Of a stretch of DNA of 64,000 nt, positions 2,093 through 54,628 are shown one piece after another. Made by a program: the position numbers and the translations under genes. The notes beneath the pieces are model-generated. The model ran no database searches, had not been told where the DNA came from, and worked only from the letters and a program-made list of their open reading frames with translations. The DNA comes from Oceanobacillus oncorhynchi (GTDB taxonomy: Bacteria; Bacillota; Bacilli; Bacillales; Amphibacillaceae), in the NCBI RefSeq assembly GCF_000821065.1, contig NZ_CDGG01000001.1, positions 3,968,001 to 4,032,000 on the forward strand, written 5' to 3'. Position 1 is the first letter of the stretch. Every line of letters begins with the position of its first letter.

Positions 2093-2450
2093 GAAAAAAC
2101 AAGAACACCACTATCTTTAAAACATTGGTGTTCTCGCCAAGGAGATGTCCGCTACGACGGTTTTCGATGGGGCGAGTAATCGCAATGGTTTTCGGTGGGA
2201 CGAGTAATCGCAGTCCCAGTCCCAGCCCCAGGAAGTCGCTTTCCGCGGGCAACGGCTCAGCCGCACGGTAAGAAAATCGCTTCCTGTTCAGGTCTACCTG
2301 TTGCTTTTCCCGCAGGAGTCGACAACATCCGCTCCCATCTTTGAAAAGATATGTTTTATTTGCTTTCTTTCAAAGAAATGAAGCTGATTCTAGCGGAGTA
2401 TTTTTTCCGTAGCGGCTATTTCCAGCTATTTTTATAAACATTCTTATTTT
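2093..2450 (+). repeat. Dispersed intergenic repeat, copy A
   Basis: The first of four elements sharing both ends and a core. The left end holds a small hairpin (AGAACACC near 2103 against GGTGTTCT near 2126). The core runs from about 2231 (GGAAGTCGCTTTCCGCGGGC) to GTTGCTTTTCCCGCAGGAG near 2311-2329. The shared TTTCTTTCAAAGAAATGAAG tract lies near 2365, and the right end is GCGGCTATTT...TTCTTATTTT. Compared with copies B-D it carries an extra block of about 74 bp at 2157-2230, inside the left part. No credible ORF spans it. It lies between two minus-strand genes. Confidence 0.8.
2157..2230 (+). repeat. Inserted hairpin module inside repeat copy A
   Basis: A block built from two near-repeats of TGGGgCGAGTAATCGCA followed by GTCCCAGTCCCAG. 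Copies B-D have no sequence here: their GCTACG or GCTGCG joins directly to GGGAAGTC. The same module occurs in copy D after ATTCTAGC, and in the diverged element at 11.6-12.2 kb in both orientations. Within it CGA-gtaa-TCG and GGGAC...GTCCC can pair. Confidence 0.7.
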
Positions 2451-2455
2451 AAAAT

Positions 2456-2486
2456 AAAGTGCCTCGGCAATGGACCAAGGCACTTT
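2456..2486 (-). terminator. Terminator downstream of the YisL-like gene
   Basis: AAAGTGCCT...AGGCACTTT stem with a short loop. On the minus strand it is followed by a T-rich stretch. It lies 65 bp past the stop codon of the gene ending at 2552. Confidence 0.75.
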
Positions 2487-2551
2487 GTCTCCTCCTGTTC
2501 GTCGAGAATGTATTACACTATCCTCACAGGAGTGTTCGTCATCCTCTTATT

Positions 2552-2923
2552 TTAGAAATAAAAACCCATTGGAAGACGGAAAAAGCCTAAAACAATAACA
2601 ATAATCAGTGCGATAAAGAATTGAATCCATTTGCCGGTTACTGCTTTTCCTTTTTTCGTAGAAACCAGAATTCCTTCCATTACCACAACAATCCAAAGAC
2701 CGGCAAGTGCTTTTACAATAGCTTCCCCAAGAAGCGGCATGCCATAGCCTTGAATATAGTCCCAAGTTAATAATCCACCGGTAACGATGATAAACAAATA
2801 CACAAGTCGTAAAATCATATGAACAATGGTTGCAGGCTTGTTACTGTTTTTCTTGTAAAGGGCTAAAGCTACTAAAAATAGAATCAGACCCAGCGCCCAC
2901 GATGTAATATGCATATGCGTCAT
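2552..2923 (-). CDS. yisL: YisL-family (UPF0344) membrane protein
   Basis: A 123-residue integral membrane protein with four hydrophobic segments (about residues 8-24, 33-55, 66-88 and 99-120) and few charged residues outside the loops. Length and pattern (MHITSWALG at the start, LITWDY-like loop in the middle) match the YisL/UPF0344 family of Bacillaceae, whose function is unknown. GGAGGGAACATGA precedes the ATG. In B. subtilis yisL also lies in the addAB neighbourhood, which supports the assignment. The gene appears monocistronic, with a terminator downstream. Confidence 0.8.
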   Translation of the reverse strand: MTHMHITSWALGLILFLVALALYKKNSNKPATIVHMILRLVYLFIIVTGGLLTWDYIQGYGMPLLGEAIVKALAGLWIVVVMEGILVSTKKGKAVTGKWIQFFIALIIVIVLGFFRLPMGFYF

Positions 2924-3067
2924 TCATGTTCCCTCCTTCAATTTTATAAATACATGTCATCATCATCTGTCATATTTCACAAAAATGACTAATAATTCGT
3001 TTATAATGATACCATTTTCTTCCCTAAGATGACATTTAAACGTATCTTTGTCAACAAATTGCCATGA

Positions 3068-4225
3068 TTAGCGTTTCATTGGCTGTAATTTTTTATACGT
3101 AATGGATCGCCATGCCCATTCCACGGGACCAAACCGAAAATATCGAAGCCAGATCATACTTCCGATAATCTGTAAGCAGAAAATCACAATCACGAGACCG
3201 ATTTGATGAACGGGCCGGATTTCCCCGTATAATCCAAAACCGATGCCATAGAAAAGCCAAAAAGAGATAATCGATTGCAGCAAGTAATTAGATAATGCCA
3301 TTTTTCCGATCGGCTTCAGGACACCAAGTACCTTCTGCGCCCTATCCTTCTCCCATAATAATGTAATCGACGTCAGGTAGAAGACGGCCGATGCCGTCCC
3401 GCCAATATTATCCTGAACTAGACTAAACCAGAGCGGGTTGCCAAATGTATACGGTCCTATCTTAAATACGATGAACACAACTAGAGAAATAACCCAAACC
3501 TTTTTCAATATTCCCTTATGGACAAGCGGCTCATGAAACCATCTCTTTCTTGCTAAGTACATCCCAAATAAAAACAGCGGCAGGAAAATAAAAGGAAACA
3601 GGAAAAAGCTGAAAATCCCGTTTGATAACTGCCAATCCTGAAAATTCTGCGCCAGAATAATGGAAAAATCATTGGATTGATAGCTTTGAAAAGCTTGGTT
3701 TATTTCCGCTGTATAACTTATATCAATAAAATTCCTTGCCGCATACTGCAGACCTGTCAAGGCAAGGGTAGATGCACCTAATAAACCAATCGCCCAGCCC
3801 ATTAAAACCTTCTCCCCGCTGTATAAGAAGAATAATAGCAAAAATCCCATTGTTCCATAAGTCAGAAGAATATCTCCGCTCCATATCGCAAAGGCGTGAA
3901 TGATTCCAAAAATAATCAACACTCCCAGCCTGCGTCCAAAAAAGCCGTATGGAGAAATATCCTTTTTATCTAAGCTGTCCTTTTGAATTTGAATCCCAAA
4001 ACCAAAAAGAATCGAAAACAGCGTGTAAAAGCTCGCTTGAAAGAAAATATCAATAAAAAACAAGCTGTACTGATCTATTTTAGCCGTCCAGGCATCCTCT
4101 GCTCCGCCATAGAGAAAATAAGGAGCAGAAAATGCTCCTATATTGACCATAAATATTCCAAAAATCGCAAAGCCTCTTGCTGCATCTATCCATTCTAATC
4201 GTTTGTTTCCCTGATAAGGTTGCAC
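3068..4225 (-). CDS. DUF418/YeiB-type polytopic membrane protein
   Basis: A 385-residue membrane protein with about nine or ten hydrophobic segments. It begins with RLEWIDAARGFAIFGIFMVN, the signature of the YeiB/DUF418 family. The C-terminal half holds GKMALSNYLLQSII and the closing GPVEWAWRSITY, which mark the DUF418 domain. The family is linked to acyltransferase-3-like membrane proteins, and no reaction is firmly assigned. The start is GTG, six bases after AAGGGGAG, and that site overlaps the stop region of addA (stop at 4229). It is therefore probably translated from the addBA transcript, although nothing in its sequence suggests a role in recombination. Confidence 0.85.
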   Translation of the reverse strand: MQPYQGNKRLEWIDAARGFAIFGIFMVNIGAFSAPYFLYGGAEDAWTAKIDQYSLFFIDIFFQASFYTLFSILFGFGIQIQKDSLDKKDISPYGFFGRRLGVLIIFGIIHAFAIWSGDILLTYGTMGFLLLFFLYSGEKVLMGWAIGLLGASTLALTGLQYAARNFIDISYTAEINQAFQSYQSNDFSIILAQNFQDWQLSNGIFSFFLFPFIFLPLFLFGMYLARKRWFHEPLVHKGILKKVWVISLVVFIVFKIGPYTFGNPLWFSLVQDNIGGTASAVFYLTSITLLWEKDRAQKVLGVLKPIGKMALSNYLLQSIISFWLFYGIGFGLYGEIRPVHQIGLVIVIFCLQIIGSMIWLRYFRFGPVEWAWRSITYKKLQPMKR

Positions 4226-4228
4226 CGG

Positions 4229-7200
4229 CTACTCCCCTTTGATAAGCAGTCCTTTTGAAAAGAAATAGAGATAGGTTTCCTCCACAGGCTGCTTCCAGAT
4301 TTCTTCTATAGCGTATCGATAAAGCTCAAGCTGGGTCTTATATCGTTTTTTCAATTTTTCTTCCAATTTCTCTGACATTTCTTCTGTAATCCGGTCTGTT
4401 TTATAATCAAGAATAATCCAGCCGTTTTCTGAAGGGATAATACAGTCAATAACTCCCTGGATCAACACTTTTTCTGAGGAGGCCCCCTGCCAGTCAGCAT
4501 ATACCTTTTCGGCCGGCAGCATTAAACTGAATGGCACTTCCTTATACAACTTTTTCTTATCAAAAATCTTTTGTGCAATAGCGGATTCTAAAAATGCGAT
4601 AATATCCGAAGTGGATACACTTTCTGCTTCTGCAGCTGTCATTTTCTCCTCCTGCACCAGTTTTTCAATAAATTCCTCTACTTCTTCATTTGCAAGCATG
4701 CCTTTTAGAGGAAGATGCTGCATCACGGTATGAAGTGCGGTCCCTTTTTCGGCCGGTGTTAATTTCTTTTCCGCTTGCATAAATCTTGGTCTTTTCGTAA
4801 TTGGAGCCTTCGTCGCTGCAGGAAGCATTTTTTCATCACTATACGTATCCTTCTGCTCCTGCTGACGTTTCAACTCGGTTACAGATTGCTTCGCACGTGA
4901 ATGAGCAGCTTCCTGATAAGGATACTGATAAGAAAGACGGTGATCCACCCAAGCATCTAACGCTTTATCTTTCTGTTCAATCGGATCCCAATTTCTGATA
5001 TGCGTTTTTAAGGCATCCTGTTTCTCCTGTACCCGATTTTCAAAGGCAACGATATCCTGACGTGGATAAATATTTGCCTCCCACTTGGACGCATCCTGCG
5101 TAATCGCAGATAAAACCTGATTACCTATCTCCTCTTCCCGCAGGACTTGTCCCTGCGGATGACGGATAAGCGCAGGGCCAATCCAATCCAGATAAGCCTT
5201 TGCTCCAACCCGGAAATAAGCCGGCAGCACCCAGTCTGGATGGTGTGCAATCCAGGACCATGCTGCTTTCCGCTTCTCCGCCGAATCCACTGTCCCTACC
5301 ATAAACAGCTTCTCTTCCGCACGTGTCAAGGCAACATACAATAGACGAATTTCTTCAGATAATTGTTCTCTCCTGATTTTTTCCCGCATCGCATGATAAA
5401 ACAACGTAGAATATTGAATTCGTTTCTCGGGATCAATAAATTTACTGGCAAAGCCCAAATCCTTATGAAGCAGATACTTTTGATTTAAATCCATCATATT
5501 AAACGATTTGCCAATGCCGCCGAGGATAACGACCGGGAATTCCAGTCCTTTACTTTTATGAATCGTCATTATCCGGACAACATCTTCCTGCTCACTGAGT
5601 GCACGGGCAGCACCTAAGTCCTTTTGCTCTTCTTCCATTCTTTCAATGAATCGCAAGAAGCGGTATAAACCGCGAAAGGACGTTTCTTCATAGCTTCTTG
5701 CCCGGTCATACAGCGCCCGTAAATTTGCCTGACGCTGCTTCCCTCCAGGGATACCGCCGACAAAATCATAGTAGCCGGTCTCCCGGTAAATCTGCCAAAT
5801 CAATTCCGAGAGCGCTCCCTGCTGGGCAGATAACCTTAAATTATCCAGCAGCTCTTGAAACTCCTTTAATTGCTCAGTTACGCTGTTATCTTCTTTTGCC
5901 ATGTATGCTAAGAGAGCATCATAAAAATTACCGTGACGATCAGCTAAGCGGATAGCCGCTAAATCATTTTCCTGCAGCCCGACGATAGGCGACCGCAGTA
6001 CTGCAGCCAGCGGAATATCCTGACGCGGATTATCAACAGTCTTTAATAAACTGATCATGACTCTGATTTCAATCGCTTCAAAATAGCCAGAGGTCAGTTC
6101 AGCATAGACAGGTATACCTTGTTTTTTCAGCTCGTCCATAATTACCGGGGCCCATGTCATTGAACGCATTAAAATAACAATATCCCGGTACATCAAATTA
6201 CGGTGCTGCCCTTTTCCTTTATCCACCACCTGCATCGGTGTTCCATTTTCTCCGGTACCAATCCATTCCTGTATTTTTTTAGCATAGGCGCGCGCTTCAA
6301 TTTGCGCCTTTTCTAAATCTTCCTCTGTTTCTTCTCCTCCATCGGATTTCTGTCCCTGTGGAGAATCAATCAGCAGCAATTCCGGATTAGAGTCGAATGG
6401 AAATTCATCGTACATGCGGTTACCATAAATCAATTCAGCATCCTCATCATAGGCAATATCCCCGACCGATTCATCGAACAGCTGACGGAATAAATAGTTT
6501 GCACCAATCAACACTTCTCCCCGGCTCCGGAAATTCCGGTTAAGATCAATTCTTTCTGCGGGATCATCGTTTGCGGCAAATTGTTTATATTTTTCGATAA
6601 ACAGGGAAGGCTCTGCATGACGAAACCCATAGATACTTTGCTTCACATCGCCAACCATAAACATATTCCCATTATCTTCCGGGTTGCGGACTAATTGCAG
6701 AATACTTTCCTGCACCAGGTTCGTATCCTGATATTCATCAACGAGTACCTCTTTAAACTGCTTTTGCAGCTGGAAAGCAATCGAAGAAGCCTGTCTGCTG
6801 TTATCCTCTGGATTTGTCTCTGTTAAAATGTCCAGACAATAATGCTCCAAATCATTAAAATCAACGATAGCCTGTTCTTTTTTTCGATTTTGAAACTTAT
6901 CCATATAGTCTTCTACCATCAAGGTCATTTGTTTCAAAACAGGTGCCATTTCCTGCATATCCTGAATATGAGCAGGCAAGCTGCGGACAAACCATTTTTC
7001 CTTCATCTTGTCCCATCTGTCCTTGACTTTTTTCCGAAAATCCTTCACTTGCTCCCGTTTCTCTGGATTATCGTCTGCTTTTTTTCTGGATAAAGCAGCA
7101 AACTTTGCATCTTGGACAAATTGGTGTAATGCCTCCCAATGCGTTATTTTTTCCATCGCTGTATCCAGTATCGCCGTATCCTTTTCCAAAGCATCCAGAT

Positions 7201-7945
7201 AATGATACGGTCCATCCGGCTCTCTTGCCACAGCAATAGCTAATGCATTCTCCTGCTTCATCGCTTCTAATTGACCCGATATTTCTTCCTTCACCTCCTG
7301 AATCCAGGGGATGGTCTCTTCCGTCCAATTCTCATCTATTTCATAATTAGCCGTCAGCTGGTGCAGCCATGCTTTGGGTGATGGATGCTGGACTGCAAAA
7401 TTTGCCGTCCGTAAAATTAACTCTTCCACATCTCTGTCACTTCGGTCATTAGAAAAGCGGTTCACCACTTCAAAGAACGTTTCCTGCTCCGTATTCGAAT
7501 CATCATACCAGCCCTCCAGCAGCTCATCCAGAACCTCCCGTTTGATCATATCCATCTCTACCTCATCGGCAATCCGGAAAGAAGGATCCAGCTCGATCAT
7601 ATAGGCATTTTTTCGTACAATATCTAAACAAAAAGAGTGTAATGTCGAAATAGAAGCTCTCTGTAATAAGGACAGCTGCTTTTTTAAATGAAGTGATCCA
7701 GGCTTTTCAGCCAGAGCCTTTTCTAACGCTGCTCCAACTCTCGCCCGCATTTCCTGGGCAGCAGCATTTGTAAACGTAACGACGAGTAATTCATCGATAT
7801 TAATTGCATCTTCTTCCTTTAATAACTTCTGAATAATACGTTCTACAAGGACAGCTGTTTTTCCGGAACCAGCTGCTGCGGCTACAAGGATATCCGTGCC
7901 GCTTTGATAAATTGCCCGTTCCTGTTCCTGTGTCCATTTAACCAC
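4229..7945 (-). CDS. addA: AddA, helicase-nuclease subunit of the AddAB complex
   Basis: A 1238-residue UvrD-like helicase with a C-terminal RecB-type nuclease domain. It resects double-strand breaks to feed RecA, doing the job of RecBCD. Walker A AAGSGKT is at residues 24-30, the DEYQDT motif II near 403, helicase motif VI LLYVALTRAEEKL near 871, and the nuclease signature GVIDCI...ILDYKTDR with downstream QLELY at about 1162-1200. The length matches the family. Start is GTG with GGGAGGGG upstream, and it overlaps the end of addB by 8 bp, so the two subunits are translationally coupled. All catalytic motifs of this subunit look intact. Confidence 0.97.
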   Translation of the reverse strand: MVKWTQEQERAIYQSGTDILVAAAAGSGKTAVLVERIIQKLLKEEDAINIDELLVVTFTNAAAQEMRARVGAALEKALAEKPGSLHLKKQLSLLQRASISTLHSFCLDIVRKNAYMIELDPSFRIADEVEMDMIKREVLDELLEGWYDDSNTEQETFFEVVNRFSNDRSDRDVEELILRTANFAVQHPSPKAWLHQLTANYEIDENWTEETIPWIQEVKEEISGQLEAMKQENALAIAVAREPDGPYHYLDALEKDTAILDTAMEKITHWEALHQFVQDAKFAALSRKKADDNPEKREQVKDFRKKVKDRWDKMKEKWFVRSLPAHIQDMQEMAPVLKQMTLMVEDYMDKFQNRKKEQAIVDFNDLEHYCLDILTETNPEDNSRQASSIAFQLQKQFKEVLVDEYQDTNLVQESILQLVRNPEDNGNMFMVGDVKQSIYGFRHAEPSLFIEKYKQFAANDDPAERIDLNRNFRSRGEVLIGANYLFRQLFDESVGDIAYDEDAELIYGNRMYDEFPFDSNPELLLIDSPQGQKSDGGEETEEDLEKAQIEARAYAKKIQEWIGTGENGTPMQVVDKGKGQHRNLMYRDIVILMRSMTWAPVIMDELKKQGIPVYAELTSGYFEAIEIRVMISLLKTVDNPRQDIPLAAVLRSPIVGLQENDLAAIRLADRHGNFYDALLAYMAKEDNSVTEQLKEFQELLDNLRLSAQQGALSELIWQIYRETGYYDFVGGIPGGKQRQANLRALYDRARSYEETSFRGLYRFLRFIERMEEEQKDLGAARALSEQEDVVRIMTIHKSKGLEFPVVILGGIGKSFNMMDLNQKYLLHKDLGFASKFIDPEKRIQYSTLFYHAMREKIRREQLSEEIRLLYVALTRAEEKLFMVGTVDSAEKRKAAWSWIAHHPDWVLPAYFRVGAKAYLDWIGPALIRHPQGQVLREEEIGNQVLSAITQDASKWEANIYPRQDIVAFENRVQEKQDALKTHIRNWDPIEQKDKALDAWVDHRLSYQYPYQEAAHSRAKQSVTELKRQQEQKDTYSDEKMLPAATKAPITKRPRFMQAEKKLTPAEKGTALHTVMQHLPLKGMLANEEVEEFIEKLVQEEKMTAAEAESVSTSDIIAFLESAIAQKIFDKKKLYKEVPFSLMLPAEKVYADWQGASSEKVLIQGVIDCIIPSENGWIILDYKTDRITEEMSEKLEEKLKKRYKTQLELYRYAIEEIWKQPVEETYLYFFSKGLLIKGE

Positions 7946-10900
7946 GGATTTCCCCTCCCTTTAGCCGTTCAATCACTTCTTTTTCTTTCATATTTGCTAT
8001 TTTTCTATAATTATTTCCTTCTAACGCAGGATCGAACTGACAAACTGCATGAAAAGGACAATACGTACATGCTTCGGTCTCTTTTTTCAGAAACGGATTA
8101 ATTTCTACTCCGCCTGAAGTCATATCCAGTCCTGCCTGCTTCAGTAATCCATGGATATGATTTTTCAATTGTTCAAATGTATCTTCATCCGCAATTTTCG
8201 AATTGCTGTTGAATGTACCATCTTTTTTCAGTCCGGCAGGAATAATATGACTGTTCCCAGATTCTAATGACTCATCCATCATTCTGGCGATGTCCTCATC
8301 AGATAAGAGCAGTCCTCTCATTTTATAAGACTTAAAGATTTGCTCCTCGATATCGCTGTCTAATTTCTCTTTATCCATATTGATCATTGGATTATGCACA
8401 TGGAAATAAAGAACGCCTGCCGGGCTCGCCTGCTGACCGAGCCATTTTTCGGAATGAGTCAGTACAACATCTAAATACGTCAGCATTTGCAGGGCAAGTC
8501 CATAGTAAACTTCCAATAAATCCAGCGCACGGGAGCTTGATTTATAGTCGATAATCCGTAAATATAAATCCTGATGAAGCTGTGCTTTATCTACCCGGTC
8601 AATTCTTCCGCGCAGCAGCAGTTCATACCCATTTTCAAGCGGCAAAATAAGCGGAGGCAGCGGGCTATCCTTCTCTCCAAAGCTGAGTTCAAGACCAATT
8701 GGGCTGAAATCTGTCTGTCTTGCCTGCTCACTTAATATAAATGCTGCCCTGGCAATAATCTCCTCCAGCTTTTGCTGAATAAATGTGTAACGGTTCGAGC
8801 TGTGCAAGATTTGATGCTGCAGTACGGGAGATAATTTCTGGATTGCCCGGTGTGCATAATTTGCCGATGTCTCCCTGGTAAGCTGCTTAAAGTCTGTTTT
8901 TTCATTTTGAACCCACTCTGTAATGAGGCGTAATGCTTCGTGGAATAATTGTCCGATATCCGGAGCATCCAATTTATATGTTTCTCTTTCTTTCAAATTC
9001 AAGCTGTAACGGGCAAAATGCTGGTACGAACATCTGTAATAAGATTCCAGACGGCTGACGCTTGCCTTGATTTGTTTTGGATAAAGTTCTTCCGCTGTTT
9101 CCTTTTTTAAATGCTCCGGCTGGTTTTTATAAAATAAGCCTTGTAATATGCGATAGGTCATACGGTATTTCGGCTGATTTTTTACATACCAATTATATAC
9201 AGCAAACCAGGCATGATCTATTTCATAGCCGCGCTGCAATCTTGCAAATTGCGTTGTCAGAGCTGCTCTTGTTTTCGTTTTGGTCGTAATAAATCGCGTT
9301 GTATCCGCAGTATCCTCCACATCTTGAAATAATACATGCTCTTGCGTTGCCGGAAACAGGCCTTCTATTCGATGAACAACCTGAGAAGGGACCTTCGCTT
9401 TTCCTTCCTCATCACTAATTGGATAACTAATCATCAGCTTATCCTTTGCTACAGTTAAAGATAAATAGATATAAAACCAATCATCCAGCAGCTGTCGTTT
9501 TCCATTATCCGCAAGCTTCAAGCCATTTTGCTCCAGCAAATCTCTTTCTTCATCGTCAATCATGCCATCAATTGTCGGCTTCATTGGCCATATTCCTTCA
9601 TTCACACCAAGTAAAAACATGCAACGGACATCAGACATTCTTGACCTGTCAATCGTTCCTACTAACACATGATCCATGGTCGGGGGCACATGTGAAAATT
9701 CCAAAGCTTCTGCGCCGGCATTGATGGAAGCATTGAAAGTAGTCATATCCATTTCTTCGTCACCAGCTATTTCTACCATTTCATCCATTAATTGGAGCAC
9801 TGCATCCCAGACCTGCTGCTGCTCCCTTCCTCTTTCAGGAATGCCCTGTTCATCGAAGGATGCACGCATTTCTTCCAGCTTTTCGGGTGCGCCTAGCGAT
9901 TCCAGCCAAATAAAAATAGCTTCACAGCGCTCTTTTACACTTCCTGCTGCACGAAAGCTTTCATCAAAAGGACGGAGTGCATGCGTTATTTGGTTGCGAT
10001 AACGATTGATTTTGTCCTGCATCTCCCTTTCCGTGTTTGTCTGCGCAGCCTGTTCAAAGCCGCGGAAACGTTGATATTTCCAAGGTTTATCATCTAACCA
10101 CTGCTTCCGGTAACGAATACCATATTCTATCGTATAGTTCTCTAATTGATCAATGGCGTCACTGGTTAAAGGAAACTCCTCATCACTGGCAGGGATAAAG
10201 CCGGTTTTTAAAACCCGGAAAATGGCATCGGAACGCCAGCCATTTTCAATTGCCTCCAGCATCGAACGAATCAGTTCAATCAATGGGTGATGCAGCATCG
10301 AACGCTTCTGGTCAATAAAAACAGGAATATCATAATCGCCAAAAATCGTTTCTATTAAATCATCATATACATCCGGCTGTCTTACTAAAATGGAAATATC
10401 CCGATAGCGGTATTCTTCGTCTCTGACAAGGGAAAGAATTTCTCCCGCAACACCCTCTACTTCTGCACGCGGATGCACTGCTTCAGCTATTTGAATCGGA
10501 GCCTCCCCTTTGTATTCCGGTAAAGGCCGTACGTCAAAATTCTGTTCTAAGTGAGCAAAGTAGGCACGCTCTTTAAACTGATCCTTTGCCGGATCTAAAT
10601 AAACAGACTGTTCCAGCGAAATACCGTTCTCTTCCGCTGCAGCTGTTAATTGGTGATGGGTTTGATTCGTCTGGTAGAAGATATCCAGTTCCTCCAGATT
10701 CTCTGTGGCTGTCGGATCTAATGTCAAACCAATATGAACCTGCGCACATTTCTTCATTAATTCCGTGATTACGGACAGCTCCTGCGGCGTAAAGCGGTGG
10801 AAGCCGTCAATATAAATATGTGCTCCTTCCAGCGTGCTTGCCTGCGGAATTTTTTCCATTAATATCTGCAGTCTGTCTTCACTGTCCATATACATATGCT

Positions 10901-11593: not shown

Positions 11594-11624
11594 GTTCCTA
11601 ATAAAAGTAATTTATCGCAGTGTA

Positions 11625-12165
11625 ACTGGCTGAGACTGGGACGGCGATTACCAATGTTGACATGTTAACGCGACCGCTGCGGAAAAACACTACGCTTTCC
11701 ATGGGCTTGCGCTCAGCCTCCTCGAAAAAAAGAAGTTCACTTTTTTTCTGCGGGGTCTTCACACTGGGACTGCGATTACTCGCCCCAGCGAAAACCATTG
11801 TGCTTTCCCATAGGAGTCTACGTATTTTTCCTCCGCTAGATAGTTTTATTGCTATCTGTTTTAAATTTAAGAAAATTAATTAACCTGACTGACAACATTG
11901 CTACGATTGCTAGCCCCACCGAAGGGCTTTTGTAAGACTCCTGCTTCCAGAAATGACGAATACATGTTATTGCTAAGCGGGAGATCCAACAGCCAGTAAC
12001 GGTCCAATTCGTTCCGGCCTACAGGATGTAGGTCACAAAGGGGTTGCGACAACGCTTTTTGATGGGGTGAGTAATCGCAGCCCCAGGACGTCGCGAACTT
12101 AGCCTTTGTTCCTTTAGTCCTTCAGTGGGGGGACGGAGCACCCCCACCGAAGGAAGTTTCATTTT
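11625..12165 (+). repeat. Diverged relative of the dispersed repeat family (copy E) and gene-free stretch
   Basis: An intergenic stretch of about 0.5 kb built from the same modules as copies A-D but rearranged. GCTTTCCATGGGCTTGCGCT and CAGCCTCCTCG lie near 11695-11725 and TGCGGGGTCTTCAC near 11751. The TGGGGCGAGTAATCGCA-type module appears reversed near 11763-11803 and forward near 12053-12090. It also holds the hairpin CCTACA-gga-TGTAGG (about 12018-12032) and a GC-rich stem near 12118-12150 (TTCAGTGGGGG against CCCCCACCGAA). No coding frame persists through it. Confidence 0.6.
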
Positions 12166-12255
12166 ATTTTCATCTGTTTCATGCCTGCACTAAAATGGTG
12201 AATGCTAGGATTGTTCATACATCTTACACGAACATATACCTGCTTTCCATCCGTC

Positions 12256-26419: not shown

Positions 26420-26494
26420 ATACAGAAAACGAACATCTATGCAGCAGGTTGTTTTCGGACAATTCCCTTTAATAATCGTTTCATCAAGAAAAAC

Positions 26495-26998
26495 CAAGAA
26501 TACCGCTTTGTTTTTAAAACATCAGTGTTCTCGCCAAAGAGATGTCCGCTACGGGAAGTCGCTTTCCGCGGGCAACGTTCAGCCGCACGGTAAGAAAACC
26601 GCTTCCTGCTTAGGTCTCCACCTGTTGCTTTTCCCGCAGGAGTCGGTTTCCCTCCGCTCCCATCTTTGAAGAAATATGTTTCATTTGCTTTCTTTCAAAG
26701 AAAAGAAGCTGATTCTAGCGACGCTTTTTGATGGGACGAGTAATCGCAGTCCCAGTCCCAGAAGAAATACACGGAGACTCCTGTGGGAATGCGCAGGGTG
26801 AAGACCTAAGCAGGAAAAAAGTGAACTCCTTTTTTTTCTACCCTCAGGGCATAAGTGCGACTTTAGCTCTGTCTGCGCCTGTCGGCTTGCCAATTGCTAA
26901 GTCTTCTTTAGAGGAGGCTGAGCTCAAGCCCACGGAAAGTGTAATGTATTTCTGGAGCGGCTATCCTTAACATTTTATACTTTCTTATTCTAAAAAAA
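26495..26998 (+). repeat. Dispersed intergenic repeat, copy B
   Basis: Same left end (AAGAATACCGC...AAAACATCAGTGTTCTCGCC), core (GGGAAGTCGCTTTCCGCGGG near 26554 to GTTGCTTTTCCCGCAGGAG near 26624), CTTTCTTTCAAAGAAAAGAAG and right end (GGAGCGGCTAT...TTCTTATTCTA) as the other copies. Between CGACGCTTTTTGATGGGACG and the right end it carries a segment shared with copy C (AGAAATACACGGAGACTCC, then GCATAAGTGCGACTTTAGC and TGCCAATTGCTAAGTCTTC). It fills the gap between convergent hmoB and liaR. Confidence 0.82.
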
Positions 26999-27025
26999 GT
27001 TGTTCCCCTGCGGACAACCTTTTTT
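26992..27025 (-). terminator. Terminator of the liaFSR genes
   Basis: AAGTTGTTC / GGACAACCTT stem (one G.T pair). On the minus strand it is followed by a run of seven T. It lies 30 bp past the liaR stop and touches the right end of repeat copy B. Confidence 0.8.
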
Positions 27026-27054
27026 GTTGGTGGCGTATCTTCATGTGAAGCGAA

Positions 27055-27696
27055 TCAATCTCCTGCTGTTTTAAATAATTGATTCCTGTGTACGTAAACA
27101 GCAGCCTGGGTTCTGTCATTCACTTCCAGCTTACTTAAAATATTGCTTACATGTGTTTTCACCGTTTTAATTCCGATATAGAGTTTTTCACTGATTTCTT
27201 GATTGGTCATTCCATCCCCAATACACAGCAGCACTTCTAATTCCCGTTCGGTCAAATCTTCATGGGGTTTTTTCGCAGGGGTGCGAAAACGGTTCATCAT
27301 TGTGTTAGCAACCTTTGGTTCAATCACATTTTCATCTTTGGCTGCTTTTCGTACAGCTTCTGCAATTTCCTGTGCATTAGAGGTTTTCAGCAAATAGCTG
27401 AATGCTCCTGCTTCCAAGGCAGGGATTACCTGTTCATTATCATAATAGGATGTCAAAATAATCACCTTGCATTCTGGATAAGAAGTCATGATCTGTCTGG
27501 TTGCTTCGATACCATTTCCATTTTCCATAATTAAATCCATCAGCACGACTTCGGGCTTCTCCTGGATAACAAGCTCAGCTCCTTTAAATCCGCTGTCCGC
27601 CTGCCCTGCAATTTCAATATCATCCTCCGTCTGTAAAAAAGAAATAATTCCTTTACGCACTACATCATGATCATCAATGACAACTACACGAATCAT
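27055..27696 (-). CDS. liaR: LiaR-type (NarL/LuxR) response regulator
   Basis: A 213-residue two-component regulator. The receiver domain has acidic VVIDDHD at the start and the phosphorylation site Asp54 in VLMDLIMENG, with Lys in LLKTS near 104. The C-terminal LuxR-type HTH (about 147-205) reads LTERELEVLLCIGDGMTNQEI and KTVKTHVSNILSKL. AAAGGGGAG precedes the ATG. It follows the matching kinase and a LiaF protein, an order that marks the LiaFSR/VraSR system, which responds to cell-wall antibiotics acting on lipid II. Target promoters are not identifiable here. Confidence 0.93.
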   Translation of the reverse strand: MIRVVVIDDHDVVRKGIISFLQTEDDIEIAGQADSGFKGAELVIQEKPEVVLMDLIMENGNGIEATRQIMTSYPECKVIILTSYYDNEQVIPALEAGAFSYLLKTSNAQEIAEAVRKAAKDENVIEPKVANTMMNRFRTPAKKPHEDLTERELEVLLCIGDGMTNQEISEKLYIGIKTVKTHVSNILSKLEVNDRTQAAVYVHRNQLFKTAGD

Positions 27697-46016: not shown

Positions 46017-46204
46017 CACATACTTCTCTCCCTTCTGTTGACTATACAATTGAACGAATCAAAAGGTTCATATAACTTTTCAAATTTTTATTCATCCACT
46101 TGTTATACGTACAAACATATCCATTCGTTTCATTTTTTTATTATATCTATCCTGTTTACTATCATTACCTCCCCGGCGCTTCTATCTAAATCATTATGAT
46201 TAGA

Positions 46205-46808
46205 AAACCAAGAGCACAACTTGGTCTTTAAATCACCAGTGTCCTCGCCGAAGCGATGTCCGCTGCGGGAAGTCGCTTTCCGCGGGCAACGGATCAGCCT
46301 CCTCGGAAGAAAATCACTTCCTGCGGGGTCTTCACCTGTTGCTTTTCCCGCAGGAGTCGGCTTCCCTCCGCTCCCATCTAAGAAGAATTATGTTTTATTT
46401 GCTTTCTTTCAAAGAAATGAAGCTAATTCTAGCGACGCTTTTTGATGGGACGAGTAATCGCAGTCCCAGAAGAAATACACGGAGACTCCTGTGGGAATGC
46501 GCAGGGTGAAGACCCCGCAGGAAAAAAGTGAATTTCTTTTTTTCTACCCTCAGAGCATAAGTGCGACTTTAGCTCTGTCTGCGCCTGTCGGCTTGCCAAT
46601 TGCTAAGTCTTCTTTTCACCCTCGGGGCATAAGTGCGACTTTAGCTCTGTCTGCGCCTGTCGGCTTGCCAATTGCTAAGTCTTCTTTAGAGGAGATGAGC
46701 TCGGGCCCATGGAAAGTGGAGTTTATTTCTGGGGCCTAAGATTACTCACCCCATGAAACCCGTTGGAGCGGCTATATTCAGCATTTTTTATATACTTCTT
46801 ATTCTTCA
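46205..46808 (+). repeat. Dispersed intergenic repeat, copy C
   Basis: The longest copy. Same left end (AAGAGCACAACTTGGTCTTT), core (GGGAAGTCGCTTTCCGCGGG near 46268 to GTTGCTTTTCCCGCAGGAG near 46338), CTTTCTTTCAAAGAAATGAAG, GATGGGACGAGTAATCGCAG module and right end (GGAGCGGCTAT...CTTCTTATTCTT). It contains a tandem duplication (46546-46687) of a segment present once in copy B. It lies between divergent yhaQ and yhzD, about 28 bp upstream of the yhzD promoter. Confidence 0.85.
46546..46687 (+). repeat. 72-bp tandem duplication inside repeat copy C
   Basis: Two 70-base units, at 46546-46615 and 46618-46687, differing at only two positions near their start (CTCAGAGC versus CTCGGGGC). Each contains GCATAAGTGCGACTTTAGC and TGCCAATTGCTAAGTCTTC. 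Copy B has a single unit. A recent duplication is indicated. Confidence 0.9.
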
Positions 46809-48675: not shown

Positions 48676-49773
48676 ATGGCAGAATTAAAATTAAATCATA
48701 TTCAAAAGAAATACGATAAGGATGTATTAGCGGTAAAAGATTTCAACTTACATATTCAAGATAAGGAATTTATTGTATTTGTCGGGCCATCCGGGTGCGG
48801 GAAATCAACTACATTGCGCATGATTGCCGGCTTGGAAGAAATATCTGACGGGGAACTGTATATTGATGAGAAATTAATGAATGATGTTTCACCAAAAGAT
48901 CGAGATATCGCAATGGTATTCCAAAACTATGCCTTATACCCTCATATGAATGTATATGATAATATGGCATTCGGACTTAAGCTTCGCAAATTTAAAAAAG
49001 AAGAAATCAAAAAACGTGTTGATCAAGCGGCTAAAATTTTAGGATTAGAAGCATACTTAGACAGAAAACCAAAAGCATTATCCGGCGGACAAAGACAGCG
49101 TGTTGCTTTAGGACGTGCGATTGTCCGGGATGCCAAGGTATTCCTGATGGACGAACCTTTATCTAACCTGGATGCAAAATTGCGTGTGCAAATGCGTGCA
49201 GAGATCCAAAAGCTGCACCAGCGACTGCAAACCACAACTATCTATGTGACTCACGACCAGACCGAAGCAATGACAATGGCAACAAGACTCGTTGTAATGA
49301 AAGATGGTGTTATTCAGCAGGTTGGTGCTCCTAAGGATGTGTATGACTTACCGGAAAACATTTTTGTAGGCGGGTTTATCGGATCTCCATCTATGAATTT
49401 CTTTACTGGCACATTGCAGGGAGACAAGTTCCAAATCGGTGACCATTCCTTCCTGATTCCGCAGCCAAAGCTTGCACCGCTGAAAGAACAGGGCTATGAA
49501 GGAAAAGAGCTGACTATCGGTGTTCGTCCGGAAGATATTCATGATGAATTAGTCTTCTTAGAATCCTCTCCTGAGTCTAAATTGACAGCCAAAATTGAGG
49601 TTGCGGAATTGATGGGAGCAGAATCTATTCTTTATTCCAGTATCGATAATCAAGAATTTGTTGCGCGCGTCGATTCTCGTGCAGATATTCAAGGCGGGGA
49701 TGAATTAGAGCTTTCCTTTGATATGAATAAGGTCCACTTCTTTGATAATGAGAGTGAACAGCGGATACGTTAA
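48676..49773 (+). CDS. msmX: MsmX/UgpC-type multiple-sugar ABC ATPase
   Basis: A 365-residue ATPase of the CUT1 sugar-import family. Walker [10 protein letters not shown] (37-45), Q-loop [11 protein letters not shown], signature [14 protein letters not shown] near 135-148, Walker [16 protein letters not shown] near 154-168, His switch VTHDQTEAM, and a C-terminal regulatory TOBE region (about 240-365, [11 protein letters not shown]). No membrane or binding protein is adjacent, matching MsmX, a shared ATPase that powers several sugar importers. GGAGATGTCATC precedes the ATG. Confidence 0.93.
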
Positions 49774-49789
49774 GACAGAAGATATTGGT

Positions 49790-49820
49790 AAAGGGGAACT
49801 CATTATAAGTTCCCCTTTTT
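49790..49820 (+). terminator. Terminator of the msmX-like gene
   Basis: AAAGGGGAACT / AGTTCCCCTTT stem followed by TT, 17 bp past the stop; the A-tract also suits the convergent SASP gene. Confidence 0.85.
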
Positions 49821-49846
49821 AGCCAGTAATATTTTATTTAATAAAA

Positions 49847-50041
49847 TTATTTACCATGCATTTGTTGTTGAGCAGTCTGCACTAGGCGTTTTGTGATTTC
49901 TCCACCTACAGAACCGTTTGCACGAGAAGTTGAATCTGCACCAAGGTTTACACCAAATTCTTGAGCGATTTCATATTTCATTTGATCAAGAGCTTGTTGT
50001 ACTCCAGGCACTACTAATTGGTTTGAATTGTTGTTTGCCAT
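49847..50041 (-). CDS. Alpha/beta-type small acid-soluble spore protein
   Basis: A 64-residue SASP that coats and protects spore [23 protein letters not shown], the GPR protease site [29 protein letters not shown] and LVQTAQQQM match the family along the full length. The ATG at 50041 has a strong AGGAGGTGATAATC before it. Expression is expected in the forespore under sigma-G, but no clear sigma-G promoter could be read upstream. Confidence 0.96.
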
Positions 50042-50110
50042 GATTATCACCTCCTGTACAAGTATCTTCTGCAGTTTCGTCCAACTTATGATAGCTAATT
50101 TTTGGAAATT

Positions 50111-50146
50111 AAAAAAGCTGAACCCTATGCATGGATTCAGCTTTTT
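50111..50146 (-). terminator. Terminator of fumC
   Basis: AAAAAAGCTGAA / TTCAGCTTTTT stem with additional CC/GG pairing in the loop, about 40 bp past the fumC stop. Confidence 0.85.
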
Positions 50147-50187
50147 GATTGCTTCATGTTCGTATTCAAAAGTACTGCTTTCTAAGC

Positions 50188-51573
50188 TTATTTGGGATGT
50201 GTCATTTCCTCTGGTCTTACATACTCATCAAATTGTTCAGCAGTCAATAAACCAAGCCTAACTGCTGTCTCTTTTAATGTTGCATTATCTGCAAATGCTG
50301 TTTTGGCGATTTTTGCAGCATTTTCATAACCGATATGCGGGTTTAAAGCAGTTACCAGCATTAATGATCCATGCAGGTTTTTCTCAATTTGCTCCAGGTC
50401 CGCTTCAATTCCGACCGCACAGCGCTCATCAAAGGAAAGAATGCTATCTGCCAGCAATTGGCTGGATTGCAGGAAGTTATAGGCAATCACCGGTTTAAAG
50501 ACGTTTAGTTCAAAATTCCCTTGACTGGCAGCAAATCCGATTGCCGCATCATTTCCCATCACCTGTGTCGCTACCATCGTTACGGCTTCACTTTGTGTCG
50601 GATTTACTTTTCCTGGCATGATCGAGCTTCCAGGCTCATTTGCCGGTATCGTAATTTCTCCAATACCACAACGCGGTCCGCTCGCTAACCAGCGTACATC
50701 ATTGGCAATTTTCATCATATCTGCAGCAAGACCTTTTAACGCCCCATGCGCATAAACCGTCTCATCATGGCTCGTTAATGCATGGAATTTGTTTTTAGCA
50801 GAAATAAATGTTTTATCAGTATATGCTGAAATAGCTTTACAAACCTTTTCTGAAAAATCCGGATGTGCATTTAAACCCGTTCCGACAGCTGTTCCACCGA
50901 TAGCCAGCTCCCGCAGATGTTCATTACTCTCTTTAATCATGGTGTATGATTTTTCTAACATCCGGTGCCAGCCGCTGATTTCCTGGCCTAACGTCAATGG
51001 GGTTGCATCCTGCAAGTGGGTCCGCCCTATTTTTACAATGTCCGTAAATTTATTTTGTTTTTCTTCCAGTGTGTCCTTGAGTTGCTTCACGGCAGGAAGT
51101 ACGGTATCTTCCAATTTCAATACAGCTGCTACATGCATCGCTGTAGGGTATGTATCATTTGAACTTTGTGATTTATTTACATCATCATTCGGATGAAGTT
51201 TTAACTCGCTCCCCTGCTCTTGAAGCCATTGATTACCAACATACGCCAATACTTCATTTACATTCATATTTGACTGTGTTCCGCTTCCTGTTTGCCATAC
51301 TACTAATGGAAAATGGTCATTTAATTTATCTGCTAATACTTGGTCTGCAGCATATTTTATTGCTTCCGCTTTTTCTTCCTCCATTAACCCCAGTTCAAAG
51401 TTGGCAACAGCTGTACTTCTTTTTAAAATTGCAAACGCTTTAATGATTTCGACAGGCATAGTTTCCTGACCAATCGGGAAATTCTGTTTACTGCGTTGTG
51501 TCTGCGCTCCCCAATATTTGTCGGCCGGCACCTTAATTTCTCCGATAGTATCTTTTTCAACACGATAATCCAT
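50188..51573 (-). CDS. fumC: Class II fumarate hydratase FumC
   Basis: A 461-residue fumarase of the TCA cycle (fumarate to malate, iron-independent). [15 protein letters not shown] at the start, [30 protein letters not shown] (catalytic His) and the fumarase/aspartase signature [13 protein letters not shown] near residue 318 are present. The ATG at 51573 has AAGGAGGAATTAGG in front; the longer open frame upstream is ignored. Appears monocistronic. Confidence 0.96.
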
Positions 51574-51735
51574 CCTAATTCCTCCTTGAACTTTTCCTCG
51601 AATCATATCTAGTGTATCAAATTTTTTGATTTTTTTCGATTTCTTTTTCATGATATGATAAGAATAAGCATATTTCCAGAGAATATCAGCTATTTTTACG
51701 TATACCAATTGAATTGAAGAAAGGAAGAATAAATC

Positions 51736-52650
51736 ATGCCGAATATCTGGACACATATTTTTTTCGCAGAAGATGCTTGCAATGCATTATCCTGGGATAT
51801 CCACCATTCCCCTTCCAGACATGCTCTCTTTCTAGGCGCTCAAGGACCTGACCCTTTCTTTTATTACCGATTCTGGCCATGGCTTTCCAGTCAAAAGACC
51901 GGACAGGAAATCGGCAACACATTGCACACAAAAGAATGCGGCCCTTTTCTAATATACCTGATTGAACAGGCTCAGGAAGGGTCTGATGAAGTAAAAGCCT
52001 ATGTGGCAGGTTTTATCACCCACCATCTGCTGGACCGTCATACACACCCTTATATCCATTACCGGGCCGGGTATCAGGGCAGTAAACACCAAAAGCTGGA
52101 AACCCTTATTGATACGAAAATGGCTTTAGACACACGTAAAATGGAACTGTGGAAGCATGCGGCATATGCAGAAATCAATGTTGGTGACACATTGCCTGTA
52201 TCCATTTTATACATATTAGATGATGCTATCCGCAGGTTTCACCCCGAATTATCTTTTCAGACGAAGGATATTCAGATTGCTTACCAGGATATGATTACTG
52301 CTCAAAAACTTTTTGCAGACCCGGGCGGCTGGAAAAATAAAATCTTAAAAGCTTTTATCAGTTCTTATTCTCATCAGCCCATCCATGAAAATATCGATTA
52401 TCTTAATGAAGAAAATAAGCTGTGGGTGCATGCAGCTACTGGAGAAAAACAGGAGGAAAGCTTTGCAGAGTTATATACGGATGCATTAAATGATGCTGTC
52501 AGCCTGCTTCCTTTGGTTACGGATTATTGGAATGAAGGCGGAGAATCAGTAAAAGCGCAGCTTATCCGCCGTATCGGCAATATTTCATATGATACCGGCA
52601 CACCTGTAGCGAATCATGATATAAACCGCTTTAGTGTACCAATTATATAA
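51736..52650 (+). CDS. Zinc-dependent phospholipase-C-like protein
   Basis: A 304-residue protein of the zinc-dependent phospholipase C family. Conserved features: [18 protein letters not shown] (N-terminal Trp and His), [14 protein letters not shown], the paired histidines [15 protein letters not shown] and [10 protein letters not shown]. No signal peptide is visible, unlike secreted phospholipases, so it may act inside on an unknown phosphoester. AAAGGAAGAATAAATC precedes the ATG. Divergent from fumC, convergent with the MFS gene. Confidence 0.82.
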
Positions 52651-52655
52651 GAAAA

Positions 52656-52700
52656 AGAAGCACATGCTCTTTGGTTCAAGACTCCTCTCAGCATGTGCTT
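52656..52700. terminator. Bidirectional terminator between PLC-like and UMF1 genes
   Basis: AAGCACATGCT / AGCATGTGCTT perfect 11-bp stem with a 21-nt loop, between convergent genes. Confidence 0.8.
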
Positions 52701-52704
52701 ATCT

Positions 52705-54015
52705 TTATTGCGGGCGTACGTTGACTTCCTCTTTTTTATTCGAAGCTCTCCTTGCCTCTTCTATTCCTTTATCAATATCCACGAATTTCAAGAGAATGAT
52801 TCCGATAATAAAGAAGAAAATAAGCGATAAAATGCCTAAGCGGCTGTTTCCCGTCAATTGTCCAATAAGCGCAAATATAAATGGGCCGACTACTGCCGCG
52901 AACTTGGATGAAATACCATAAAATCCAAAAAACTCCGCATGCTTTCCAGTTGGTATCATACGTCCAAAAATGGAGCGGCTCAATGATTGTGCTCCTCCTT
53001 GAACCATTCCTACAATAATTGCCAGCATATAAAAATGAAGAGCAGTGCTCATAAAATAACCAATAATGACTATTCCTAAATAGATGTACAATGTGATAAA
53101 TAATGCTTTCTTTGCTGTAATCTTTGTTGCCAGCCAACCGAAAAAGAAGGTAAATGGTATGCCGACAAATTGGGTAATCAATAACGCAATAATCAAATCA
53201 TTCTGACCAATCCCAATCTCACTTCCATAAACAGTTGCCATTCGGATGATGGTAGAAATTCCATCATTATAAAGCCAAAATGCAATCAGAAAAATAGCCA
53301 GCTGTTTAAATTGCTTTATCTCCCGGAAGGTGTTTCCGACTCTGGAAAAACCAATGGCTATATATGATTTTTCCCGCTTTACTTTCTCTTTTTTCTCTTC
53401 TTTTATATTTTTCAGGAGCGGAATCGTAAAAATCAGCCACCAGATACCTACAGAAGCAAGCGAAATTCTGGTTGCCCATTCTGTATCAGGAATCCCGAAC
53501 CAGGATGGGTTTAATATCATCATCACATTAACAGCTAATAAAATACCGCCTCCAATATATCCATAGGCAAAACCGCCTGATGATACTTTGTCCATCTCTT
53601 CTTTTTCAGCAATCTCCGGTAAAAATCCATCATAAAAAATATTACCGCCCGAAAATCCAATCGAACCAATAATGAATAATAAAGAGGCCAGTAAATAATC
53701 TCCCTCACTGATGAAGATCATTAAAATACTTGCAATAATCCCCATAAATGCGAAAAAACGAAGAAATTTTTTCTTTGCTGCTGAAAAATCACTGATGGCA
53801 CCAAGTATCGGTGCAAGAATAGCTACAATCAGCACAGAGATAGATTGTGAATATCCCCAATAGCTTGTTGCTAAATGATCATCCAGACCAGATGCAGCAA
53901 CTGTTGAATAATAAACGGGTAGTACTGCAGCCATCATCGTTGTTGCAAAAGCTGAATTCCCGAAATCGTACATCATCCAGCTGCGCTGTATTTTCTTTCT
54001 CGATTTTGCGTCCAC
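52705..54015 (-). CDS. MFS transporter of the UMF1 (Atg22-like) family
   Basis: A 436-residue carrier with about 12 membrane helices. RSWMMYDFGNSAFATTMMAA at the N-terminus is the Atg22/UMF1 signature. YWGYSQSISVLIVAILAPIL, GGFAYGYIGGGILL and MVQGGAQSLSRSIFGRMIP are further family blocks. Substrate unknown; relatives in B. subtilis (YxiO) are uncharacterised. The GTG at 54015 follows AAAGGAGGGGGATAAA; an in-frame ATG eight codons earlier lies ahead of that site and is disfavoured. Confidence 0.88.
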   Translation of the reverse strand: MDAKSRKKIQRSWMMYDFGNSAFATTMMAAVLPVYYSTVAASGLDDHLATSYWGYSQSISVLIVAILAPILGAISDFSAAKKKFLRFFAFMGIIASILMIFISEGDYLLASLLFIIGSIGFSGGNIFYDGFLPEIAEKEEMDKVSSGGFAYGYIGGGILLAVNVMMILNPSWFGIPDTEWATRISLASVGIWWLIFTIPLLKNIKEEKKEKVKREKSYIAIGFSRVGNTFREIKQFKQLAIFLIAFWLYNDGISTIIRMATVYGSEIGIGQNDLIIALLITQFVGIPFTFFFGWLATKITAKKALFITLYIYLGIVIIGYFMSTALHFYMLAIIVGMVQGGAQSLSRSIFGRMIPTGKHAEFFGFYGISSKFAAVVGPFIFALIGQLTGNSRLGILSLIFFFIIGIILLKFVDIDKGIEEARRASNKKEEVNVRPQ

Positions 54016-54206
54016 TTTATCCCCCTCCTTTACTTGCATTATAATGGATTTATTTGGTTAATCCTATCTATTTTTTTAATTTAATATTATTTCTTAAAAA
54101 AACCTATATTCCGTCTTTTCTGCATGCAGTATATGCTGACATGAATGTTCTCACAACTGCTATTTACTTGGAGCGTGCAAAAGATAACTGCCATACTCCA
54201 AATAAA

Positions 54207-54628
54207 AAAACAAGAATACCGCTTGGTCTTTAAAACATCGGTGTCCTTGTCGAAGAGATGTCCGCTACGGGAAGTCGCTTTCCGTGGGCAACGGCTCAGC
54301 CTCCTCGGAACAAAACCGCTTCCTCCGGGGTCTTCACCTGTTGCTTTTCCCGCAGTAGTCAACTTCCCTCCGCTCCCATCTAAGAATAAATATGTTTCAT
54401 TAGCTTTCTTATAAAGAAATAAAGCTAATTCTAGCGACGATTTTGATGGGGCGAGCAATCGCAATGGTTTTCGGTGGGACGAGTAATCGCAGTCCCAGTC
54501 CCAGCGGGAAGACCTCGCAGAAAAAAGCAAACTTTTTTTTTACTCTCGGGGCCTAAGATTACTCACCCCATGAAACCCATTGAATCGACTGCCTTCAACT
54601 TTTATAAGGTTTCTTATTCCTAAAAAAA
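54207..54628 (+). repeat. Dispersed intergenic repeat, copy D
   Basis: Same left end (AAGAATACCGCTTGGTCTTT), core (GGGAAGTCGCTTTCCGTGGG near 54269 to GTTGCTTTTCCCGCAGTAG near 54340) and right end (TTCTTATTCCTAAAAAAAAG). After ATTCTAGC it carries the full double module GATGGGGCGAGCAATCGCA plus GGTGGGACGAGTAATCGCAG that is found elsewhere in copy A. It lacks the ACACGGAGACTCC segment of B and C but shares GATTACTCACCCCATGAAAC with C. Confidence 0.82.

What the first reader, a model, noticed from the sequence alone, without database searches (positions are those of the whole stretch)
2093..54628. Family of at least four large modular intergenic repeats with shared ends and one orientation
Elements near 2.1, 26.5, 46.2 and 54.2 kb start with the same AAGAAtACC...GGTGTTCTC hairpin. 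They share a core beginning GGGAAGTCGCTTTCCGCGGG or close to it and end in GGCTAT...TTCTTATTC. Lengths are about 358, 504, 604 and 422 bp. All four point the same way although flanking genes lie in convergent, divergent and tandem arrangements. No open frame is conserved. Four copies plus a diverged fifth in 64 kb is a high density. The ORFs that cross them encode related peptides only because the DNA is related. Similar GC-rich palindromic repeats occur across Bacillaceae as far as I recall, but I know of no assigned function.
Basis: partly seen in the sequence, partly recalled or inferred. Interest (0 to 1): 0.72.

Follow-up and report, generated by a model that had tools for sequence, protein, structure and literature searches.

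The report
Terminator-targeting mosaic mobile repeats in Oceanobacillus
These repeats are copies of a gene-less jumping DNA element that tends to settle just behind the stop signals of bacterial genes, nearly always facing the same way relative to chromosome copying, which suggests it inserts into single-stranded DNA at the replication fork.

Summary
The four window elements (E1-E4) share both ends and one orientation. They belong to a family with at least 33 right-end matches in this Oceanobacillus chromosome. They are insertions: relatives have empty orthologous sites.

That strand is the lagging-strand template in 28 of 30 copies, against 68% of genes and 54% of terminator-like sites. No target-site duplication is seen in 30 copies. 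The right end is itself a hairpin plus TTTTTCTTA. One IS200 group in related genomes sits after terminators in 14 of 14 copies scored; another, 0 of 3.

Best explanation: non-autonomous elements moved by an IS200/IS605-like single-strand transposase. No partner with matching ends was found. Inner modules are shared with two other end types and include Rfam Bacillaceae-1 copies.

The parts
2092..2451 (-). E1, type-1 element (active strand -), inserted after the terminator of the gene at 2552-2923(-)
   Evidence: empty site in G002, G008, G009; a different element at the same terminator in G015
2452..2490 (-). host intrinsic terminator behind which E1 sits (stem AAAGTGCC...GGCACTTT)
   Evidence: conserved in relatives without E1
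11611..12172 (-). E5, diverged mosaic with other ends (TTTATCGCAGTGTAACTGG...) and the inner modules in part inverted
12018..12118 (-). Rfam RF01690 Bacillaceae-1 match inside E5, its loop split by a 35-nt insertion
   Evidence: 61.2 bits, gathering 35
12052..12086 (-). D-hairpin module inserted in the Bacillaceae-1 loop; the same hairpin also lies in E1-E4
26486..26991 (-). E2, type-1 element, after the terminator of the gene at 27055-27696(-)
   Evidence: single-strand fold z -5.5
26992..27030 (-). host terminator next to E2 (AAAAAAAGTTGT...ACAACCTTTTTT on the + strand)
   Evidence: -9.1 kcal/mol
46201..46806 (-). E3, type-1 element between divergent genes; its left end lies in a T-tract behind a weak hairpin, not a strong terminator
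   Evidence: hairpin -4.3; single-strand fold z -8.2
54203..54621 (-). E4, type-1 element, after a terminator (AAAAAAAAGGTATAGG...CCTATACC on the + strand)
   Evidence: empty in G002, G008, G009. Left out of the 30-copy set because the script picked a wrong left end
54622..54667 (-). host terminator next to E4
   Evidence: conserved in relatives without E4

Best explanation
The four elements are copies of a non-autonomous mobile element that behaves like an IS200/IS605-family (Y1 HUH, single-strand 'peel and paste') derivative. Its left end AAGAATAAGAAAGTATA is joined 3' of a T-tract, preferably that of an intrinsic terminator; its right end is a hairpin (CCAAG-N7-CTTGG) followed by TTTTTCTTA, so the element ends in a mimic of its own target. 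Insertion takes place on the lagging-strand template, which gives the uniform orientation. Sitting behind terminators spares host genes. Shown: empty sites, site preference, one-sided target motif, lack of duplication, strand bias, module sharing. Inferred: the enzyme class, movement in trans, and recognition of target and right end by the same feature.
For: Empty orthologous sites for E1-E4 and for two elements of another species. Hairpin of -8 kcal/mol or better next to the left end in 20 of 30 own copies, against 1 of 30 at the right end, 30 of 300 random and 56 of 300 T-tract-matched positions. In relatives 13 of 18 copies and 12 of 18 further left ends; two pairs among these are by their flanks the same old insertion, so they are not fully independent. 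T dominates positions -7 to -2 on the left flank only; no duplication for k=2-12, 0 of 30 perfect. Lagging-template orientation in 28 of 30 against 512 of 750 genes on the leading sense (binomial 0.0012); 19 of 20 at terminators against 309 of 572 terminator-like sites (8e-5), 9 of 10 elsewhere (0.006). In the own-genome hit lists 32 of 33 right ends (of) and 30 of 33 left ends (of) agree. In relatives 32 of 42 neighbouring copies on one contig agree in orientation; 12 of 20000 shuffles reach that. IS200 (Y1 transposase) copies of one group in related genomes have a terminator-like hairpin before the left end in 14 of 14 scored (one of 15 had no recognisable left end), and the right end of the G001 copies is also hairpin plus TTTT. 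A review states that IS200/IS605 orientation recapitulates replication direction and that insertion prefers the lagging template (PMC5371812, passages). Right-end sequence strongly conserved in most of 63 aligned copies.
Against: No autonomous element with these ends was found: the 20 Y1 loci show only weak 11-21-nt resemblances to the ends, and 24 ORFs in 18 regions picked for left ends without a listed right end gave no transposase family (3 of the 24 without any family; two regions hold long masked runs). The own genome has only three Y1 matches: one interrupted by a stop and two short fragments, one of them also with a stop. The left end has only a weak hairpin (by eye). Guide-to-cleavage-site pairing was not tested. 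Three copies of another IS200 subfamily are not next to hairpins (0 of 3). Ten of the 30 own copies lack a strong hairpin. Of 42 clusters with a right end, 33 have an annotated left end; some of the other nine do have one by eye or by regex, but at least 456587, 609756 and 4204672 seem to lack it, which single-strand transposition alone does not explain. Right-end copy 3664858, just beyond the skew switch, is oriented against the rule. A published H. hydrogeniformans IS605 set shows no strand bias (PMC7290912, passages), so bias is not universal in the family.
Confidence: 0.66

Rival explanations
1. RNA-mediated insertion: a transcript whose 3' end is set by the right-end terminator is copied by a group IIC-intron-type reverse transcriptase, which also targets terminators.
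For: Group IIC introns have a Rho-independent terminator stem-loop upstream of their insertion site (PMC7923331, passages), which resembles what is seen here. The right end looks like a terminator. A few copies have a right end but apparently no left end (456587, 609756, 4204672), as 5' truncation would give.
Against: No Rfam family except Bacillaceae-1 reaches threshold in the window, so no group II intron part is seen. 33 of 42 right-end clusters keep an annotated left end, and in relatives left ends without right ends also occur, so loss is not one-sided. IS200 copies in related genomes use the same kind of site. Presence of a reverse transcriptase gene in the genome was not searched.
Confidence: 0.12
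2. Classic MITE moved by a DDE transposase with terminal inverted repeats and target duplication.
For: Two other end types carry the same inner modules; type 3 has inverted repeats and 8-bp duplications (TAACAAAT at 2762494, TTCTTTTT at 2187146; read by eye).
Against: Type 1 has 0 of 30 duplications and a one-sided target motif. The replication bias is strong in type 1, while type 3 shows 2 of 5 (read by eye).
Confidence: 0.08
3. Not mobile in itself: a functional structured RNA or chromosome-organising signal kept in leading sense by selection (double terminator, insulator or replication-strand signal).
For: Long foldbacks (z -8.2 with 20 shuffles and -5.5 with 100), intergenic placement, strand bias, and an Rfam-listed module.
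Against: Window sites are empty in relatives, the right end is found in only 7 of 28 congeneric genomes, and inner modules are shuffled, added or lost down to a 94-bp copy.
Confidence: 0.1

Closest known systems
IS200/IS605 family and its PATE derivatives (palindrome-associated transposable elements)
   Same: No target duplication, target motif on the left flank only, hairpin near the right end, lagging-template orientation, no internal gene; one IS200 group in related genomes uses the same kind of site
   Different: No matching transposase found, weak left-end hairpin, long mosaic interior shared with other element types, preference for a terminator hairpin plus T-tract
Group IIC introns
   Same: Insertion just after intrinsic terminator hairpins
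   Different: No ribozyme part seen, no gene inside; both ends kept in 33 of 42 right-end clusters
Rfam RF01690 Bacillaceae-1 RNA
   Same: Present as a module: 31 matches in this genome, several inside type-1, type-2, type-3 and E5 mosaics (V module and E5)
   Different: Listed as a candidate structured RNA (Weinberg 2010, table row); here it behaves as a repeated, nested module and can be split by another hairpin
REP/BIME and Bacillus cereus-group bcr repeats (recalled)
   Same: Many intergenic palindromic mosaics
   Different: Not compared by sequence here; RAYT association and bcr identity were not tested

Membership tests
IS200/IS605-derived non-autonomous element (PATE-like) | no target-site duplication | tested here: met
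   0 of 30 perfect at any k from 2 to 12; means lie within about two standard deviations of the shuffled pairs
IS200/IS605-derived non-autonomous element (PATE-like) | insertion 3' of a specific short motif on one flank only | tested here: met
   T in 23-28 of 30 at each of positions -7 to -2; right flank shows no motif at +1 to +6 and is A-rich further out. The motif is a T-tract rather than a fixed tetranucleotide
IS200/IS605-derived non-autonomous element (PATE-like) | subterminal hairpins at both ends | tested here: inconclusive
   Right end: CCAAG-N7-CTTGG in many of 63 aligned copies; left end: only a weak hairpin by eye
IS200/IS605-derived non-autonomous element (PATE-like) | orientation follows replication (lagging-strand template) | tested here: met
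   28 of 30, controls, hit lists, relatives
IS200/IS605-derived non-autonomous element (PATE-like) | Y1 HUH transposase with the same ends in the genome or a relative | tested here: not met
   no partner found, in a limited search. Hence 'works like', not filed as a member
IS200/IS605-derived non-autonomous element (PATE-like) | guide sequence pairing with cleavage sites | not tested
   no cleavage data; left-end guide not defined
Group IIC intron | insertion after a terminator stem-loop | tested here: met
   20 of 30 copies
Group IIC intron | catalytic domains V/VI and intron-encoded RT | tested here: not met
   no such match in the window at Rfam gathering scores; no gene was found within the elements
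DDE-type MITE | terminal inverted repeats with target duplication | tested here: not met
   for type 1; by-eye duplications exist for the type-3 relatives
RF01690 Bacillaceae-1 | covariance-model score over the gathering threshold | tested here: met
   window 12018-12118, 61.2 bits; applies to E5, not to E1-E4

The most novel reading that the evidence does not exclude
A single-strand transposition system that reads 'hairpin followed by T-tract' as its address, because this is also the shape of its own right end. Intrinsic terminators of the host then serve as genome-wide safe landing sites on the lagging template, and a mosaic of passenger hairpins, Rfam Bacillaceae-1 among them, spreads with it and with unrelated element ends.
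Probability: 0.43. Interest if true: 0.75.

Novelty: new variant of a known kind. Interest (0 to 1): 0.62.

Why it matters
It would give IS200-type transposition a structural target rule (terminator hairpin plus T-tract) that explains how such elements can reach high copy number without breaking genes, and it can be tested in closed genomes and at the bench. It also recasts the Bacillaceae-1 'RNA' as at least partly a mobile module, which matters for annotation, and it gives an intergenic marker of replication direction that indicates here a strongly asymmetric chromosome (dnaA near 0.09 Mb, skew switch between 3.42 and 3.66 Mb).

Tried and rejected
Autonomous partner: type-1 ends compared with 20 fetched Y1 loci (weak 11-21-nt matches only), left and right ends searched in relatives, and 18 regions picked by eye for left ends without a listed right end. 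Of those 18 regions 8 turned out to contain a right-end match after all (two of these belong to a second copy further on). 24 ORFs from 17 of these regions and their surroundings were scanned against Pfam: host-type families in 21, no family in 3, no transposase; not every ORF was scanned, and L285 and L295 hold 760 and 352 masked bases. Phage records: no match; plasmid records: five, with one core stretch at 75-79% in Priestia, Niallia and Radiobacillus. Recalled B. subtilis dif site: no match in the window. Paper searches listed nothing that I recognised as describing this family or IS200 targeting of terminators; I saw listings, and passages of four papers. Most subscription papers are not held.

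Rows dropped: the 30-copy set keeps copies with both ends matched by script (length under 750) and drops 4022196 (E4, wrong left end picked); E1 and copies such as 982874, 4061164 and 413983 fell out because one end was not matched. The orientation exceptions outside that set are 407627 and 1363916 (left ends) and 3664858 (right end, near the skew switch). One of 15 IS200 loci (L204) had no recognisable left end; IS605-type and other Y1 loci were not scored. In one search two of 20 regions had no left end, one counted region (L230) has a masked flank and counts as a miss, and one (L234) has a doubtful left end but counts as a hit. In one search the left end was misplaced in L279 and L294, which count as misses. 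L219/L224 and L281/L288 share their flanks, so they are not independent. One search uses the 80 right-end rows of five relatives and leaves out the single G002 row.

Weak points: genes are simple ORF calls; 'leading' rests on dnaA and GC skew in 40 sampled stretches plus the window, with the switch set at 3.54 Mb; the terminator score is a hairpin energy plus T-tract filter, not a trained predictor; hairpins were sought ending within about 16 nt of the junction for type 1 and 24 nt for IS200.
Full report
What was checked. The four elements at 2.1, 26.5, 46.2 and 54.2 kb are there with shared ends and one orientation. Used as queries in their own genome (4,608,004 bp, one contig; window at 3,968,001-4,032,000) E1 gives 91 and E3 96 matching pieces, with only 40 candidates scored in each search. 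All five window mosaics searched against 40 fetched stretches plus the window give 76 clusters of all end types. A right-end probe finds 33 copies here and copies in 7 of 28 genomes searched in the genus: own 33, then 25, 22, 21, 7, 5 and 1.

Anatomy. The 30 copies with both ends matched by script measure 94 to 655 bp. The inner order is largely collinear (d, c1, U repeated 0-3 times, H, c2, D, K, B) but modules come and go; the 94-bp copy has hardly any interior. The same inner series also sits between two other pairs of ends: type 2 (CTATATAAATTGAA...) and type 3 (GGCTCTTCACCAAAATCTATGG..., resembling ISL3-type ends as I recall, with 8-bp duplications by eye). Two elements fold as single strands far better than shuffles (z -8.2 with 20 shuffles, -5.5 with 100).

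Mobility. At the orthologous places the window elements are missing in each relative that could be compared: E1 in four, E2 in three, E3 in four and E4 in three genomes. The host terminator is conserved there at E1 and E4. In G015 a different mosaic (E5 type) sits at the E1 terminator, and in G009 an E5-type sits at the E2 terminator, so the same sites were hit independently. Two elements of another species also have empty sites in relatives; in one of them extra sequence beyond the right end is not explained. The closest full-length pair of type-1 copies in the own genome is 97% identical and the next 90%, so at most a little of the amplification looks recent.

Target. The left end follows T's at -7 to -2 (23-28 of 30 at each position), while the sequence just after the right end shows no motif, and no duplication is seen. 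A hairpin of -8 kcal/mol or better precedes the T-tract in 20 of 30 copies, against 1 of 30 for the other end, 30 of 300 random intergenic positions and 56 of 300 T-tract-matched positions (Fisher 9e-8 against the last). In relatives: 13 of 18 (one of the hits doubtful) and 12 of 18 (two misses by misplacement). Ten of the 30 own copies, E3 among them, sit without a strong hairpin.

Strand. dnaA lies at 90-92 kb on the minus strand and GC skew changes sign between 3.418 and 3.655 Mb. The active strand equals the lagging-strand template in 28 of 30 copies, against 512 of 750 genes in leading sense (0.0012). Target orientation alone does not explain this: terminator-like sites are 309 of 572 leading-sense, but 19 of 20 terminator-adjacent copies are (8e-5), and 9 of the 10 others (0.006). 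Where the gene on the terminator side points the other way, 6 of 7 copies are still lagging-template oriented (0.044). In the wider own-genome hit lists 32 of 33 right ends and 30 of 33 left ends agree. Exceptions seen: 0.646 and 3.048 Mb in the 30-copy set; left ends at 0.408 and 1.364 Mb and a right end at 3.665 Mb outside it. In the five relatives with more than one match, neighbouring copies on one contig agree in 32 of 42 pairs, reached by 12 of 20000 shuffles. The D-hairpin module alone is leading-sense in 67 of 87 pattern matches, but many lie inside the elements, so this is not independent. Type 3, with duplications, shows 2 of 5, and type 2 6 of 7 (read by eye; small numbers).

Link to IS200. 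Y1 transposase loci were fetched from relatives. In one group of IS200 copies, 14 of 14 with a recognisable left end (15 examined, six genomes) have a terminator-like hairpin and T-rich stretch before the element; the six near-identical copies of G001 are among them. The right end of the G001 copies is also a hairpin followed by TTTTGATT. Three loci of another IS200 subfamily, two of them relics in the own genome, are not next to such hairpins (0 of 3). IS605-type loci were not scored. A review states that IS200/IS605 insertion prefers the lagging template and that element orientation follows replication (PMC5371812, passages); another paper reports no strand bias in Halanaerobium (PMC7290912, passages). 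Group IIC introns are the known terminator-targeting precedent (PMC7923331, passages).

Mechanism. Most likely type-1 elements are moved in trans by an IS200-like Y1 transposase that joins the left end behind a hairpin plus T-tract on single-stranded lagging template. The right end has the same shape as the target; one copy (3890589) directly follows what looks like another element's right end. Enzyme identity and hairpin recognition are inferred. No partner with these ends was found, so I say 'works like', not 'is a member'. Of 42 right-end clusters 33 have an annotated left end; three or more of the rest seem truly truncated, which keeps an RNA-mediated route open.

Bacillaceae-1. RF01690 has 31 matches in the own genome, 29 over the cut-off. 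Six of the eight elements with a V module hold one of these matches by coordinates, in type-1, type-2 and type-3 contexts, and the window copy is split in its loop by the 35-nt D hairpin. The source paper lists it as a candidate structured RNA (PMC2864571, table row). At least part of this family is therefore a travelling module; whether any copy works as an RNA is open.

Noticed in passing
window 12018-12118; genome-wide: Rfam Bacillaceae-1 has 31 matches here, several nested in other repeats; in the window its loop is interrupted by a 35-nt hairpin module.
   Followed up: partly
own genome, about 0.09 Mb and 3.42-3.66 Mb: dnaA and the GC-skew switch divide the chromosome very unequally (about 3.4 against 1.1 Mb): a real asymmetry, a rearrangement or an assembly effect.
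   Followed up: no
own genome 1331763, 2074929, 2187146, 2762494: MITE-like elements with ends GGCTCTTCACCAAAATCTATGG and, where read, 8-bp duplications carry the same inner modules as the terminator-targeting family.
   Followed up: partly
own genome 495943, 1030844, 2196085, 2665700, 4481811, 4491789: A third end type (CTATATAAATTGAA...TTCAATTTATATAG) with the same core; the element at 646015 holds such a core between type-1 ends.
   Followed up: partly
L196-L203, L205, L206, L215, L085, L098, L100: IS200 copies in related genomes sit directly behind terminator-like hairpins, apparently a target preference of some IS200 subfamilies.
   Followed up: partly
L243 (G008) around 2540; own 422729 and 2319288: A further, different insertion whose end resembles a repeat with CTCAACTTTCGCACC appears at the same kind of terminator site.
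   Followed up: no
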